Source of the DNA: Fluviicola chungangensis
Lineage (GTDB): Bacteria; Bacteroidota; Bacteroidia; Flavobacteriales_D; Crocinitomicaceae
Direction of reading: 5' to 3'
DNA: 64,000 nucleotides
Assembly: GCF_007558725.1 (NCBI RefSeq)
Contig: NZ_VLPL01000001.1
Location: forward strand, 125,984-189,983
Below the pieces are notes generated by a model. That model saw nothing but the letters and a program-made list of their open reading frames with translations, made no database searches and was not told the origin of the DNA. Both the position numbers and the translations under genes were made by a program. This document shows positions 5,235-43,279 of the stretch, in pieces (the first letter of the stretch is position 1; each line of letters opens with the position of its first letter).

Positions 5235-5301
5235 CACCGCAAAGAAAAGCGCAAAGATTTTAAATAAATCAAACTTTGTGTACTCTGCGCTCTTTGCGGT
5301 T
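5235..5301. repeat. ACCGCAAAG-type intergenic palindrome, copy 1
   Basis: The left arm carries ACCGCAAAGA and GCGCAAAG words and the right arm the complementary ctttgtg, TGCGCT and CTTTGCGGT words around an AT-rich loop. It begins 3 bases after the MarR stop and probably serves as terminator. Related elements are at 29450, 35419 and 58264. Reading it as the coding start of the next gene gives a spurious 49-residue extension. Confidence 0.7.
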
Positions 5302-8152: not shown

Positions 8153-9694
8153 ATGATCGACGAAGAGCTGTTTCAAGCGAAGAAATTATATCCATTTCAG
8201 GAAAAGACTGTAAATGCAATCATAGACGAACTGGATAAAAATGGTTCTGATTATAATCTGCTATTCCAGCTTCCTACAGGAGGAGGAAAAACTGTGATCT
8301 TTTCCGAGGTAGCCAAGAGTTATATCGAACGTTATCAGAAAAAAGTGTTGATCCTGACGCACCGGATTGAATTATCCGTTCAGACATCCAAGCAGCTGAA
8401 TGCGATCGGAATCTCCAATAAAGTTATTTCCAGTGATGTAAAGAACCTGATCGATGAAGAGCATCATCCATGCTATATTGCCATGGTTGAGACGCTGAAC
8501 AATCGTTTGCAGGAAGACGAGAATTTTGTAGATGGTGTCGGTTTGGTCATTGTCGATGAAGCACATTACAACAGTTTCAGAAAGATTTTCCAATATTATT
8601 CGGGAGCCAATATCCTGGGAGTTACAGCTACACCGCTGAGCTCAAATAAAGCATTGCCTTTGAATGACCACTACAACAAGTTGCTGGTCGGCGAGAGTAT
8701 CGCTTCATTGATCCAGGGTGGTTATTTATCGGATGCCGAAACATTTACCTACGATGTAAATTTACATGGTTTGAAGATCGGGACGAACGGTGATTTTACC
8801 GTAAGTTCTTCCGAGACCGTTTATGGAAATTACTTCATGCAGGAGAAATTGTTGTTTGCATATGAGGAAGTAGCAGTAGGAGATAAAACCTTGATTTTTA
8901 ATTCGGGGATCGAAACTTCTCTGCGCGTGGAAGAAACATTCAAGAAAAGAGGATATAAGATCCGTCACCTGGATTCTACGTTCTCCGATAAAGACCGGAA
9001 AGATGTATTGTCCTGGTTTAAAACGACCAAAGATGCCATTTTGACTTCTGTTGGGATTTTGACTACCGGGTTTGACGAGCCGACAGTCGAAACCATTATT
9101 TTGAACCGTGCAACGCGCTCATTGACTTTGTATCACCAGATGATTGGCCGTGGATCACGCCGTTTGCCCAATAAATCAAATTTCAAGCTGATAGATCTGG
9201 GAAATAACGTGCGTCGTTTCGGTCTTTGGCAGGATTATATTAACTGGCAGGATGCTTTCCGTTTCCCGGACCGGTTCCTGGAGTCGCGCCTGAGTGAGGA
9301 CGACGACCTGGAATTTGAGGTGGAATTTGAATTTCCGCGTCACATGGAGCAGTTGGTTGATACCAATTTCCTGGAAGAGTTCAGTATCCGTGATGTATAT
9401 TACGAGTGTTTGGACAAAGGAGAGAAAGGGAAGCTGGCAGTGGATCTTTCCCTGGCAAATCATTGTGAAGGGATTGTGCGAAAAACAAAAGACCTGGACG
9501 ATGCCATTCAAATTGTGGATGCATTACAGGATCATATTGAGCACCGCTTAAAGCTTTACACTAAATGTATTGCTAAGAGTACCCCGAATTACTTCAAGTA
9601 CCTGATGGAAACGTATAACCGGCAATTGCGCCAGGAGATCCGGATGAAATTTGACGAGATCGAGGCGGAAGCTGAAGAAGCTGAATTGGATTAG
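8153..9694 (+). CDS. DEAD/DEAH-box superfamily 2 helicase (ResIII-like)
   Basis: A 513-residue ATP-dependent nucleic-acid translocase. Motif I is PTGGGKT (41-47), motif II DEAH (135-138), motif III TATP (about 158-161), and motif VI MIGRGSRRLP lies in the C-terminal RecA-like lobe. The helicase core most resembles the ResIII/type I restriction R-subunit and UvrB-like group. There is no nuclease or methylase neighbour, so a restriction role is not indicated. The C-terminus ends in an acidic coil (EIEAEAEEAELD). It is single, with its own promoter and terminator. DNA repair or RNA metabolism are both possible. Confidence 0.85.
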   Translation: MIDEELFQAKKLYPFQEKTVNAIIDELDKNGSDYNLLFQLPTGGGKTVIFSEVAKSYIERYQKKVLILTHRIELSVQTSKQLNAIGISNKVISSDVKNLIDEEHHPCYIAMVETLNNRLQEDENFVDGVGLVIVDEAHYNSFRKIFQYYSGANILGVTATPLSSNKALPLNDHYNKLLVGESIASLIQGGYLSDAETFTYDVNLHGLKIGTNGDFTVSSSETVYGNYFMQEKLLFAYEEVAVGDKTLIFNSGIETSLRVEETFKKRGYKIRHLDSTFSDKDRKDVLSWFKTTKDAILTSVGILTTGFDEPTVETIILNRATRSLTLYHQMIGRGSRRLPNKSNFKLIDLGNNVRRFGLWQDYINWQDAFRFPDRFLESRLSEDDDLEFEVEFEFPRHMEQLVDTNFLEEFSIRDVYYECLDKGEKGKLAVDLSLANHCEGIVRKTKDLDDAIQIVDALQDHIEHRLKLYTKCIAKSTPNYFKYLMETYNRQLRQEIRMKFDEIEAEAEEAELD

Positions 9695-9752: not shown

Positions 9753-9778
9753 GTTGTTTCGATTTTTTTCTGAGAACG

Positions 9779-9923
9779 AATTAACTTAATGGTTAACAAC
9801 CAGTAATTGGCAATGGTTGGGTCATACACATTAGTAAACCAATTAACTAAAAGGTTAACAACTTACAAGTTTGTGTTTTCCGGTACAAGTTATTTTAGTT
9901 AACAAGTTAACTAAATGGTTTAC
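9779..9923. repeat. Operator-like repeat cluster, TTAACTAAAAGG family (locus 1)
   Basis: Three copies of one motif at 9779, 9836 and 9904, about 60-68 nt apart: AATTAACTTAATGGTTAAC, AACCAATTAACTAAAAGG and AAGTTAACTAAATGGTTTAC. Read on the minus strand they match the alternating A and B units of the larger array at 42.2 kb. No gene is seen in the 306 bases between the helicase and the lipoprotein. Confidence 0.75.
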
Positions 9924-15587: not shown

Positions 15588-15697
15588 TACTTAGTGGTTA
15601 GTTGAATGTTTACTTCTCAAAACCCTAATTCTAATAACTAACCTCTAATCCCTAGCCCCTAATCCCTAAAGACTAATCCCTAAACACTAATAACTAG
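15581..15697. repeat. CTAATCCCTAA word repeat forming a long imperfect hairpin
   Basis: The left arm (15581-15604) repeats TTAGT/GTGGTTAGT words. The right arm (15621-15697) contains CTAATCCCTA-like words about five times, complementary to the left. It overlaps the VF530 stop and ends 7 bases before pepD. Confidence 0.6.
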
Positions 15698-34999: not shown

Positions 35000-35255
35000 A
35001 AAAAGTGATTTGAAGCAAACATACTTATAATTGAAAAGTGAAAATTGAAAAGGGAGAAATAAAAGTGAGAAATGCTGTTAGTAAGTTTACTAACGTGCTT
35101 TTGATCCGATTCAGATTGACACTGTGAACAGATTCATCAACTGTTTCAAATTTTTCAGAAAAAGTTTTTCACCGTTACAAAATAAACTGAAAAGAAATGC
35201 GTTAGAAGGAAAAACGCACTTTATTAAGCCTATGGTAAATAAATACTTGACGAAC

Positions 35256-41497: not shown

Positions 41498-42151
41498 ATG
41501 AAAAACCTGAAATGGATCACCTACCTGAATTTAGTTCTTTATGGACTTTTTATTTGTGTGAATATCCTGGAGTTGATCTGGAACGGGTATAACTACTCCC
41601 TGGTAGATAAATTGATCATTTCCGAATCAATGAGTTTCAGCTCTTTTTTTGTGAAATCGGAAATAAAAGTTCACACGATATTGAACTGGATCAGTTTGAT
41701 TGCTTTGATTCTTTTTTTAGTGTTTGCCAACCGTTTCGTTAAGAAAAATGATTTAGGAAAATCGTTTCATTTTTTAATCGTGTTATTGGCTTTCTTTCCC
41801 TTTGTCAGTTATTTTCTGTACTACATTATCTGGAGAAAGCTGAATCAAAGTTTATTCATGTATTTGGGAGATTCGGCTAAAGAATCAGATCGGGTGATTG
41901 TATTGATTTGGATATTCGAACTTTCCGTAATACTGTGTTCGGTATTATTTACAAGCGTTCAGTATTATTCGAACAGTCCAGAACTTGCCTCGCTGGCCAC
42001 CCGTTTAAAGGATTTTGAACTTATAGCACACTCAATTTATCTGTTACTTCTTTCAATTCTGTACTTGTTCTATTTTATCCATTTCAAAAAGGGCATTATG
42101 AAACATGAAGGCGGGGTACGGGATATGATTGAAAATGAGTTGATCGATTAA
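41498..42151 (+). CDS. Hypothetical membrane protein
   Basis: 217 residues with five to six predicted membrane helices (about 8-30, 60-80, 92-112, 130-152 and 172-192) and a polar C-terminal tail ending ENELID. No family is recognised. It is a single gene with a good promoter, followed by the repeat array. Confidence 0.6.
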   Translation: MKNLKWITYLNLVLYGLFICVNILELIWNGYNYSLVDKLIISESMSFSSFFVKSEIKVHTILNWISLIALILFLVFANRFVKKNDLGKSFHFLIVLLAFFPFVSYFLYYIIWRKLNQSLFMYLGDSAKESDRVIVLIWIFELSVILCSVLFTSVQYYSNSPELASLATRLKDFELIAHSIYLLLLSILYLFYFIHFKKGIMKHEGGVRDMIENELID

Positions 42152-42170
42152 ATTTAAATGACGAGAGTTT

Positions 42171-42620
42171 GTAAACCATTTAGTTAATTGGTTTCAGATT
42201 ATATCCGGATTTGTTCGTCGATTGTTACTTATTAACCTTTTAGTTAATTGGTTTTCACGTTTATCCAGTTTTGTTCATCGATAGCCGAGCTACTTGTAAA
42301 CCATTTAGTTAATTGGTTTCAGATTATATCCGGGTTTGTTCGTCGATTGTTACTTATTAACCTTTTAGTTAATTGGTTTTCACGTTTATCCAGTTTTGTT
42401 CATCGATAGCCGAGCTACTTGTAAACCATTTAATTAATTGGTTTCAGGTATACTAAGGTTTATTCACAGCCTGTTAAGATATGTGGCTTGTAAACCTTTT
42501 AGTTAATTCGTTCACAAACGGTATTGATTTTTGATGACCAACAACATACTAAGCCTGTTAGCAAATTTACTAAAAGGTTAACAGGTTGATTTAATGACTT
42601 GAAAGTAAATGGTTTATACT
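42171..42620. repeat. Operator-like repeat array, AAACCATTTAGTTAATTGG family (locus 2)
   Basis: Two near-identical 125-bp units (42171-42295 and 42296-42420, one mismatch) each hold an A half (AAACCATTTAGTTAATTGG) and a B half (TTAACCTTTTAGTTAATTGG). Further single copies are at 42421 and 42490, and reverse-oriented relatives at 42564 and later. Motifs recur every 60-69 bp, as in the smaller cluster at 9.8 kb. No gene is seen between 42152 and 42745. Confidence 0.9.
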
Positions 42621-42745
42621 TTTAAATCAAGTGATTTTACTAACTTGCTCACACCATTTTACACTCCGTTTAAAATAATTTTCACTCCCGCGTCACTTTT
42701 CCGCTACTCGTTACACTAACTTTATCAAGAGACCAATTTAGCAAG

Positions 42746-43279
42746 ATGGCGGCCACGAAGAAAAAACGTTTTATGGAGCTTTATGAACCGATACATGTAA
42801 GGTTCGAAAAGTTTTGTAAGGCAAGAGCGTATGGGAATTTCAATTTCAAGGATTTGATGCATGATGCGTTAGTGGTCGCGTATGAACGTTTCGATTCCCT
42901 GAAAAAAGAAGAGGCTTTTTTACATTTCCTCTTTGGAATTGCCATCCGTTTGCTGGCAAATGAAAACCGCAAGATCAGTACGGAGCGTTTCTCCGATCAT
43001 TCACAGGTCTACAATTATTCCCTAGAAAGTGATCGAACGGAAAGACTTTTGGAGATTAACTCTTTGTATGAAGCGATTTCTCAATTACCGGATTTACAAA
43101 AAGAAAGTATTATCCTGTTCGAGATCTCCGGATTTTCGATCAAAGAGATTGCTGAACTACAGCAGTCTTCGGAAGATGCCGTGAAACAGCGATTGGTCAG
43201 AAGCAGGAAAAAATTGGTTGAATTGATGACCGGGAAAAAAGAAGTAGCATTAAATAATTTGAGTTATGACAGAAGATAG
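42746..43279 (+). CDS. ECF-type RNA polymerase sigma factor
   Basis: 177 residues. Region 2 lies at about 25-80 (FKDLMHDALVVAYERFD) and region 4 at about 112-165 (LPDLQKESIILFEISGFSIKEIAEL, then VKQRLVRSRKKL). It directs RNA polymerase to a specialised regulon, usually under control of a membrane anti-sigma factor. The stop overlaps the following membrane protein by 14 bases, which makes that protein the probable regulator. Confidence 0.9.
   Translation: MAATKKKRFMELYEPIHVRFEKFCKARAYGNFNFKDLMHDALVVAYERFDSLKKEEAFLHFLFGIAIRLLANENRKISTERFSDHSQVYNYSLESDRTERLLEINSLYEAISQLPDLQKESIILFEISGFSIKEIAELQQSSEDAVKQRLVRSRKKLVELMTGKKEVALNNLSYDRR

What the first reader, a model, noticed from the sequence alone, without database searches (positions are those of the whole stretch)
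42171..42620. Periodic operator-like array shared by two distant loci
Two 125-bp units with one mismatch alternate A and B versions of a roughly 20-bp imperfect palindrome (AAACCA...TGGTTT ends) every 60-65 bp. The same motif with the same spacing occurs at 9779-9923. This is neither a CRISPR (spacers also repeat) nor a usual transposon. Regular spacing near six helical turns suggests cooperative binding of one protein, as in partition, nucleoid or iteron sites. It lies just upstream of the ECF sigma gene.
Basis: partly seen in the sequence, partly recalled or inferred. Interest (0 to 1): 0.6.

Follow-up and report, generated by a model that had tools for sequence, protein, structure and literature searches.

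The report
Scattered paired operators, co-evolving regulator
The odd repeat array is one outpost of a family of short mirror-image DNA sites scattered between genes in a few related bacteria, most likely bound by a small regulator protein whose own gene is bracketed by the same sites and which, in the genomes examined, is found where the sites are numerous.

Summary
Six direct copies and one reversed copy of a 26-bp imperfect palindrome lie at 42171-42582, and three more at 9772-9923; only four of the seven sit in the recent 125-bp duplication. The sites belong to a dispersed, mostly intergenic family: in this genome 17 strong F1 sites in 7 intergenic regions and at least 24 F2 sites, many in relatives G001 and G013, one in G007, hardly any in the other ten genus genomes. 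Sites recur in the same intergenic regions of different species although the DNA around them, and the prevailing motif version, have changed. The commonest spacing is 71 bp, not six helical turns. A small ArsR-like winged-helix gene is flanked by sites in exactly the three site-rich genomes; its orthologue is in 3 of 240 family genomes. Of 19 distant paralogues, 11 carry look-alike palindromes about 100-140 bp upstream. Best explanation: dispersed operators of this protein, often paired around an IHF-like motif and leaning to gene 3' ends; function perhaps local folding or insulation. Tests here argue against CRISPR, an origin/terminus cluster, an ECF operator and RAYT-mobilised REPs. No binding experiment exists.

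The parts
42171..42196 (+). F1 site, A version
42231..42256 (+). F1 site, B version
42296..42321 (+). F1 site, A version (second 125-bp unit)
42356..42381 (+). F1 site, B version (second 125-bp unit)
42421..42446 (+). F1 site, A version (partial third unit)
42490..42515 (+). F1 site, diverged; best-scoring site of the genome
   Evidence: 38 bits, E 6e-9
42557..42582 (-). reversed site, F1/F2 hybrid
42627..42652 (-). weak F2-like site (4 mismatches), 70 bp from the previous one
42169..42418 (+). recent tandem duplication of a 125-bp unit holding one A and one B site
9772..9797 (-). F1 site, between two convergent genes
9834..9859 (-). F1 site, between two convergent genes
9898..9923 (-). F1 site, between two convergent genes
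35077..35102 (-). F2 site; a site is also present in the orthologous region of G013 (L213), where the whole region is conserved
42746..43279 (+). ECF-like sigma gene downstream of the array; orthologues in relatives lack the array
41498..42151 (+). gene upstream of the array (no Pfam match); the first site starts 20 bp past its end

Best explanation
Shown by sequence: the arrays belong to a genome-wide, mostly intergenic family of 26-bp palindromes of the type GTNARC-N3-TTA-N3-AA-N3-GYTNAC. Several sites are kept at the same intergenic places in species whose surrounding intergenic DNA has diverged, and the prevailing version of the motif differs between species. Inferred: they are operators of a 100-aa ArsR-like winged-helix protein (here encoded at G000:C15:341328-341627), whose gene they flank, and which binds each site as one or more dimers. 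The F2 motif contains an 8-2-8 palindrome like those upstream of several of the protein's paralogues, plus one extra half-site. Two sites often lie about 71 bp apart with an IHF-like motif midway, so a bend between two bound complexes could fold about 97 bp into a small loop. More speculative: because the sites lean towards gene 3' ends and convergent gene pairs, the complexes would act as boundaries or roadblocks between transcription units rather than as ordinary promoter operators. The window array is such a locus enlarged by a recent 125-bp tandem duplication.
For: Dispersal with a sharp score gap: 17 sites of 25.6 bits or more in G000, the next at 16.1. Lineage restriction: 4 of 40 genomes, G000 included, match R1 at E<=0.01, one of them (G009) by a half-site only. 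Conservation against diverged flanks: 28 consecutive identical columns across one site in G000/G001 (further alignments). Positional conservation: 9 of 13 non-coding G013 site regions have sites in the orthologous region of G000 and/or G001. Motif shift: of 18 exact G013 matches to TTARTAAAATNRYTWAC 16 begin TTAGTAAAAT, against 0 of 11 in G001 and no exact match in G000, where TTAGTAAACT prevails. Regulator link: the gene is flanked by sites in all three genomes; an orthologue of 84% identity or more is in G000, G001 and G013 only, 3 of 240 family genomes, the same three that are site-rich. At the LemA-like locus and the E1-like locus the same three genomes have sites and the other 10 of 13 and 11 of 14 examined do not. 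The three are not one clade (AU p 0.014). Paralogue test: GTTAGYAANNTTRCTAAC fits the 230 bp upstream of 19 ArsR-like paralogues better than shuffles (summed mismatches 80 against 111, sd 2.9, lowest of 100 shuffles 105) and better than 25 control upstream regions. HTH_5 (ArsR family) above the Pfam cut-off. SmtB/ArsR operators are described as 12-2-12 inverted repeats (PMC8790569, passages), the outline of this 26-bp site.
Against: No binding data. The co-occurrence rests on few independent events (minimum 2 changes on the tree; a sign test cannot reach significance). G000 carries two subfamilies, and only F1 flanks the ArsR-like gene there; F2 could belong to another protein. The paralogue pattern was fixed after I had seen their upstream palindromes; 5 of 19 paralogues have 6 mismatches, like typical controls, and one control has 3. 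Sites lean to 3' ends, unlike classical operators. Doublets at 71 bp, 3'-end bias and tandem clusters also describe REPINs and REPs. G007 has one near-perfect site and no orthologous regulator. Of the 9 shared G013 regions, one (L213) is conserved throughout and in another (L203/L196) the sites lie at different places within the region.
Confidence: 0.62

Rival explanations
1. REP/REPIN-like dispersed repeats: palindromic doublets that spread by transposition, mostly neutral, with the ArsR-like gene an accidental neighbour.
For: Doublet spacing of 71 bp, as in GI REPINs of P. fluorescens SBW25 (PMC3116915, passages); 3'-end and convergent bias as in REPs (PMC3733652, abstract and section 15); tandem clusters; a shared motif inside the doublet spacers of three genomes; weak Y1_Tnp matches do exist in the site-rich G001 (1) and G013 (3).
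Against: No Y1_Tnp (PF01797) in G000, while site-poor genus genomes have it; no GTAG or CGTC tag in the consensus; neighbouring sites have the same orientation in 49 of 55 cases, while 93% of SBW25 doublets are inverted; single-strand folds pair the two sites with each other in only 4 of 21 doublets; sites stay alike while their surroundings diverge.
Confidence: 0.2
2. Operators of some other DNA-binding protein (another regulator, a nucleoid or terminus protein), with the ArsR-like gene merely one of its target loci.
For: Two subfamilies in G000; no common theme seen among flanking genes (one search's output was cut); four F1 regions at 135-282 kb of contig C1, not far from a GC-skew sign change between about 270 and 310 kb.
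Against: F2 sites are spread over 8 contigs; the half-sites resemble the upstream palindromes of ArsR-like paralogues; presence matches the ArsR-like orthologue.
Confidence: 0.14
3. Only a local tandem duplication with no wider meaning.
For: The 125-bp unit is duplicated with one mismatch.
Against: Three further copies in the same array, two of them diverged, and single or paired copies at many other loci and in other species.
Confidence: 0.02
4. RNA element (terminator or 3' hairpin) rather than a DNA site.
For: Intergenic, leaning to gene 3' ends; 3 of 9 copies fold with z between -1.6 and -2.6.
Against: The other 6 of 9 copies have z between -0.9 and 1.0; no Rfam match in the window.
Confidence: 0.02

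Closest known systems
ArsR/SmtB-family repressors with 12-2-12 inverted-repeat operators
   Same: Small winged-helix protein, palindromic 26-bp sites flanking its own gene, several paralogues with palindromes upstream
   Different: Dozens of dispersed sites leaning to gene 3' ends; score below the NCBIfam metalloregulator cut-off (37 against 55 bits), so possibly not a metal sensor
REPs and REPINs (GTAG/CGTC-tagged palindromes, RAYT-associated)
   Same: Short intergenic palindromes, doublets at 71 bp, 3'-end bias, tandem clusters, versions that differ between species
   Different: No RAYT found in this genome, no tag, mostly direct orientation, few cross-pairing hairpins, AT-rich, tens of copies found, linked to a winged-helix gene
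TAACTGA intergenic direct repeats of Beggiatoaceae, Cyanobacteria and some Bacteroidetes (PMC4679880, passages)
   Same: Lineage-patchy intergenic repeat of unknown function
   Different: Heptamer direct repeats, mostly just upstream of start codons in the main genome studied, not spaced palindromes

Membership tests
ArsR/SmtB regulator with its operators | ArsR-type winged-helix domain | tested here: met
   PF01022 HTH_5, 32.3 bits against cut-off 22
ArsR/SmtB regulator with its operators | NCBIfam metalloregulator subfamily cut-off | tested here: not met
   NF033788 37 bits against 55; so it is filed as ArsR-like, not as a metalloregulator
ArsR/SmtB regulator with its operators | 12-2-12-type inverted repeat next to its own gene | tested here: met
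   26-bp sites about 100 bp upstream and about 40 bp downstream of the gene in three genomes
ArsR/SmtB regulator with its operators | protein binds the sites | not testable with these tools
   needs EMSA or DAP-seq
ArsR/SmtB regulator with its operators | predicted three-dimensional fold | tested here: inconclusive
   single-sequence AlphaFold2 model of the G001 orthologue, mean pLDDT 41.5; not used further
REP/REPIN | GTAG or CGTC tag at one end | tested here: not met
   consensus of 45 copies lacks either tag
REP/REPIN | RAYT (Y1_Tnp) in the genome | tested here: not met
   0 matches in G000; 11 of 14 genus genomes match, among them site-rich G001 and G013 and site-poor ones
REP/REPIN | doublets as inverted repeats forming one hairpin | tested here: not met
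   49 of 55 neighbours in the same orientation; cross-pairing in 4 of 21 folds
REP/REPIN | intergenic, leaning to gene 3' ends | tested here: met
   16 of 57 site regions convergent against 35 of 237 background; mean relative position 0.36 in co-directional regions
CRISPR | unique spacers between near-identical repeats | tested here: not met
   spacers duplicate with the 125-bp unit, repeats vary, single copies elsewhere
Partition or terminus site family | clustered near origin or terminus | tested here: not met
   F2 sites on 8 contigs; the F1 subset alone leans to C1 (4 of 7 regions)

The most novel reading that the evidence does not exclude
A lineage of Fluviicola maintains a REPIN-like population of about 97-bp elements (site, IHF-like bend, site) whose partner is not a transposase but a dedicated ArsR-like DNA-binding protein. 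Protein and sites co-evolve and are lost together, and the elements act as loop-forming boundaries between transcription units: a small clade-specific chromosome-organising system derived from a local repressor.
Probability: 0.25. Interest if true: 0.78.

Novelty: new variant of a known kind. Interest (0 to 1): 0.56.

Why it matters
If true, a local autoregulator's operator has spread to tens of intergenic places, often keeps a fixed pair geometry, changes its sequence in step across species, and disappears with its protein. That would make the origin of global regulators or nucleoid-type proteins testable in a small system, and show that REPIN-like site populations need not depend on a transposase.

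Tried and rejected
RNA-structure reading: folds of 9 copies not consistent, no Rfam match in the window. Replication-fork trap or terminus reading: GC skew of the sampled part of C1 changes sign between about 270 and 310 kb and four F1 regions lie at 135-282 kb, but F2 sites are spread over 8 contigs. RAYT/REP reading: PF01797 absent from G000. Phage or plasmid origin: the motif pattern has 0 exact matches in viral contigs; the ArsR-like protein has no match in phages, plasmids or, by the peptide-pattern search, viral contigs.

Generalisation that every ArsR-like paralogue has a dispersed site family: not supported. In 400-kb samples each of G012, G007 and G013, and 464 kb of G000, each paralogue palindrome tested occurs 0-2 times within 2 mismatches; the one in G007 lies at the paralogue's own promoter. 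The same G013 sample held no F3 match, which fits about 20 sites in 4.6 Mb but is no positive evidence; reversed control patterns gave 0-3.

Structure prediction: too poor to use. A PDB sequence search gave only weak winged-helix matches, best E 0.0011. Literature: searches listed no paper that, from its title or the start of its abstract, describes these repeats; I opened only PMC3733652 (abstract, section 15), PMC3116915 (abstract, passages), PMC4679880 (passages) and PMC8790569 (passages). Three of ten paper searches were not used.

Choices and dropped rows: model R1 used 14 copies and left out the duplicates at 42296 and 42356. R2 used 45 copies, one of them (L094) inside an open frame. 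F2 is counted as the 24 of 34 G000 matches with core TTAGTAAACTTRCTWAC; one of the 24 (C12:213513) lies in a called gene, and a 25th with one further change (C2:70664) also does. In some searches I used 21 of the 22 doublets listed, leaving out 42557/42627 because its second site is weak. The motif tests, and the self-derived motifs, use a motif I had seen in the same spacers; the Gibbs run does not, but it took the best of 4 starts for the real set and of 2 for each of 8 shuffled sets. In one search the LemA locus of G004 was left out because its contig ends nearby.

Full report
Observation. The array is real. A 26-bp imperfect palindrome occurs as six direct copies and one reversed copy at 42171-42582, and as three copies at 9772-9923 on the other strand. 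Two 125-bp units, 99% identical, hold four of the seven copies; one more is a partial third unit and two are diverged, so the array is older than the duplication. The 13-mer TTTAGTTAATTGG occurs 7 times in the window with up to one mismatch against 0.39 expected. In the whole genome it occurs 6 times exactly, 5 of them in the two arrays.

Genome-wide family. A sequence-only model from 14 copies (R1) finds 17 strong sites in G000 (25.6-38 bits), then a gap to 16.1 bits. They lie in 7 intergenic regions at 6 places, two of the regions being the two sides of one gene. A variant pattern uncovered a second subfamily, F2 (core TTAGTAAACTTRCTWAC): 24 of the 34 G000 matches have this core, on 8 contigs; the reversed control gave 17 matches in G000. 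This is a lower bound, since a further F2-like site turned up (L074). The common outline is GTNARC-NNN-TTA-NNN-AA-NNN-GYTNAC. Exact matches to a slightly wider form, each strand counted, are 25 in G000, 50 in G001, 10 in G013, 2 in G007 (one site), 1 in G008 and 0 in the other nine genus genomes; the reversed pattern gave 0-2. A scan of the genome-contig collection found the F1 pattern in 6 stretches, five of that MAG and one Proteus contig, which I did not examine and take as chance.

Anatomy. With locus-specific patterns I scored 49 sites in G000, 50 in G001 and 23 in G013 in the fetched loci (these loci were chosen because they hold sites). Of 55 neighbour gaps up to 160 bp, 22 are 69-73 bp (71 the mode, 10 cases); in G013 6 of 7 are 71 or 72. 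Other gaps group at 40-45, 60-67, 100-101 and 136-142. Neighbours have the same orientation in 49 of 55. The roughly 45-bp spacers of 69-73-bp doublets share a central motif, about ATTGATTTTCA, found by a Gibbs search in 21 doublets (score 250.6; 8 shuffled sets 167-185). Its complement resembles the IHF consensus WATCAANNNNTTR, which I recall from memory: 12 of 21 spacers match within one mismatch against 3.3 in shuffles (maximum 10 in 300). Whether an IHF-like protein binds there is unknown. The spacers of the 60- and 65-bp gaps in the window were not part of this test.

Position. Most sites are intergenic: 3 in G000, 2 in G001 and 1 in G013 fall inside called genes, of the 49, 50 and 23 above. 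Of 57 site-bearing intergenic regions, 34 are co-directional, 16 convergent and 7 divergent, against 156, 35 and 46 in 464 kb of contig C1 (p 0.013, not corrected for orthologous regions counted more than once). In co-directional regions the mean position of 69 sites is 0.36 of the way from the upstream stop to the downstream start (p 4e-5, sites in one region not independent). The gene caller was a simple hexamer script.

Conservation. G000 and G001 proteins near shared site loci are 66-97% identical. At the L097/L088 locus one site is identical over 28 consecutive columns while the flanks are not. Of 14 G013 site loci, one is inside a long open frame shared with G000 (L208/L187); 9 of the other 13 have sites in the same intergenic region of G000 and/or G001. 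With about 2,200 intergenic regions of 60 bp or more per genome (extrapolated from 237 in 464 kb) well under one overlap would be expected by chance. One of the nine (window 35 kb/L213) is conserved throughout and so adds nothing on constraint, and in one (L196/L203) the sites lie at different places. At L183/L091/L212 the three species carry different versions (F2 in G000, F1 in G001, the AAAATT type in G013) with gaps of 70, 71 and 71 bp. In 700 bp before that gene, G000, G001 and G013 have sites and the other 11 of 14 genomes have nothing better than 4-5 mismatches to the general pattern (for G009 only 309 bp were available).

The regulator. One site-bearing locus holds a 100-aa ArsR-like gene (L098:11329-11631) with sites on both sides in G000, G001 and G013. 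Pfam HTH_5 is above cut-off. Orthologues (84% or more) exist in these three only, of 14 genus genomes and of 240 family genomes; the next relatives there are at most 42% identical. In G002, G007, G008 and G009 the lipoprotein-like and LemA-like neighbours are adjacent without this gene (these gene names are my reading of the translations), and in 700 bp before the LemA-like start the 10 site-poor genomes examined have nothing better than 3-5 mismatches to the general pattern. On a tree of 1,293 protein columns the three positive genomes are not one clade (AU p 0.014) and at least two changes are needed; G007, with one residual site, sits among the genomes that lack the gene. This is too few events for a formal association test.

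Paralogue operators. I compared the 230 bp upstream of 19 ArsR-like paralogues (32-42% identical, from this and other genomes; identities). Matching them with the F2-derived 18-mer GTTAGYAANNTTRCTAAC gives 80 summed mismatches against 111 (sd 2.9) in shuffles; 11 of 19 have 4 or fewer, at about -98 to -139, for example GTTCGCAATATTGCGAAC and GTGAGTAATATTACTAAC; 5 of 19 have 6. Of 25 control upstream regions 1 has 3, 3 have 5, 17 have 6 and 4 have 7. I chose the 18-mer. The F2 site can thus be read as such an operator plus one extra adjacent half-site; the fit of F1 to this reading is poorer. In samples of 400-464 kb the paralogue palindromes are rare (0-2 copies), so wide dispersal looks special to the clade-specific protein.

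The ECF gene. Orthologues were found in 8 genomes, G000 included, at 84-100% identity. The array exists only in G000; G001 has one F2-like site, G009 a half-site (also the weak hit), and G002, G003, G007, G008 and G013 nothing better than 3-4 mismatches to the general pattern. The sequence just before the start codon looks alike in all 8 (by eye). The array is therefore not a conserved operator of this gene; it starts 20 bp past the end of the upstream gene.

Verdict. Operator-type DNA sites dispersed through the genome: well supported. Function as folding or boundary elements: speculative. REPIN-like spread remains the main rival, because the 71-bp doublet spacing, 3'-end bias and clusters coincide with published REPINs and REPs (PMC3116915 abstract and passages; PMC3733652 abstract and section 15), although tag, orientation and hairpin tests failed and no RAYT-type transposase was found in this genome.

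Noticed in passing
window 8153-9691: ResIII/DEAD-type helicase is 99.1% identical over 347 aa to its G001 counterpart, while the protein on the other side of the 9.8-kb array is 75% identical: a sign of recent transfer or exchange next to the array.
   Followed up: no
L101 (G007) 5256-5285: A single near-perfect site lies between a DinB-like and a DnaE-like polymerase gene (my reading of the translations) in a genome without the ArsR-like orthologue; possibly a relic.
   Followed up: partly
L066 5249 (G000), L262/L264 (G002/G009) upstream of the E1-like gene, L118, L123, L125: A second palindromic element (CTGTTCG..GCGAACA followed by CGAATTC) occurs both upstream of another group of ArsR-like paralogues and in unrelated intergenic DNA; rare in samples.
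   Followed up: partly
window 15631-15696: Short tandem repeat of a 14-bp unit CTAATCCCTAAACA.
   Followed up: no
window 35029-35074: 13-14-bp A-rich tandem repeat ending just before the F2 site at 35077.
   Followed up: no
G000 contig C1, about 270-310 kb: GC skew changes from positive to negative in sampled stretches, a possible replication terminus.
   Followed up: no
L117 and L120 (G010, G012) upstream of ArsR-like paralogues: Repeated TAATATACCTAACTTGTTT element, two copies 68 bp apart in L117 and a similar pair in L120, echoing the doublet spacing of the main family.
   Followed up: no
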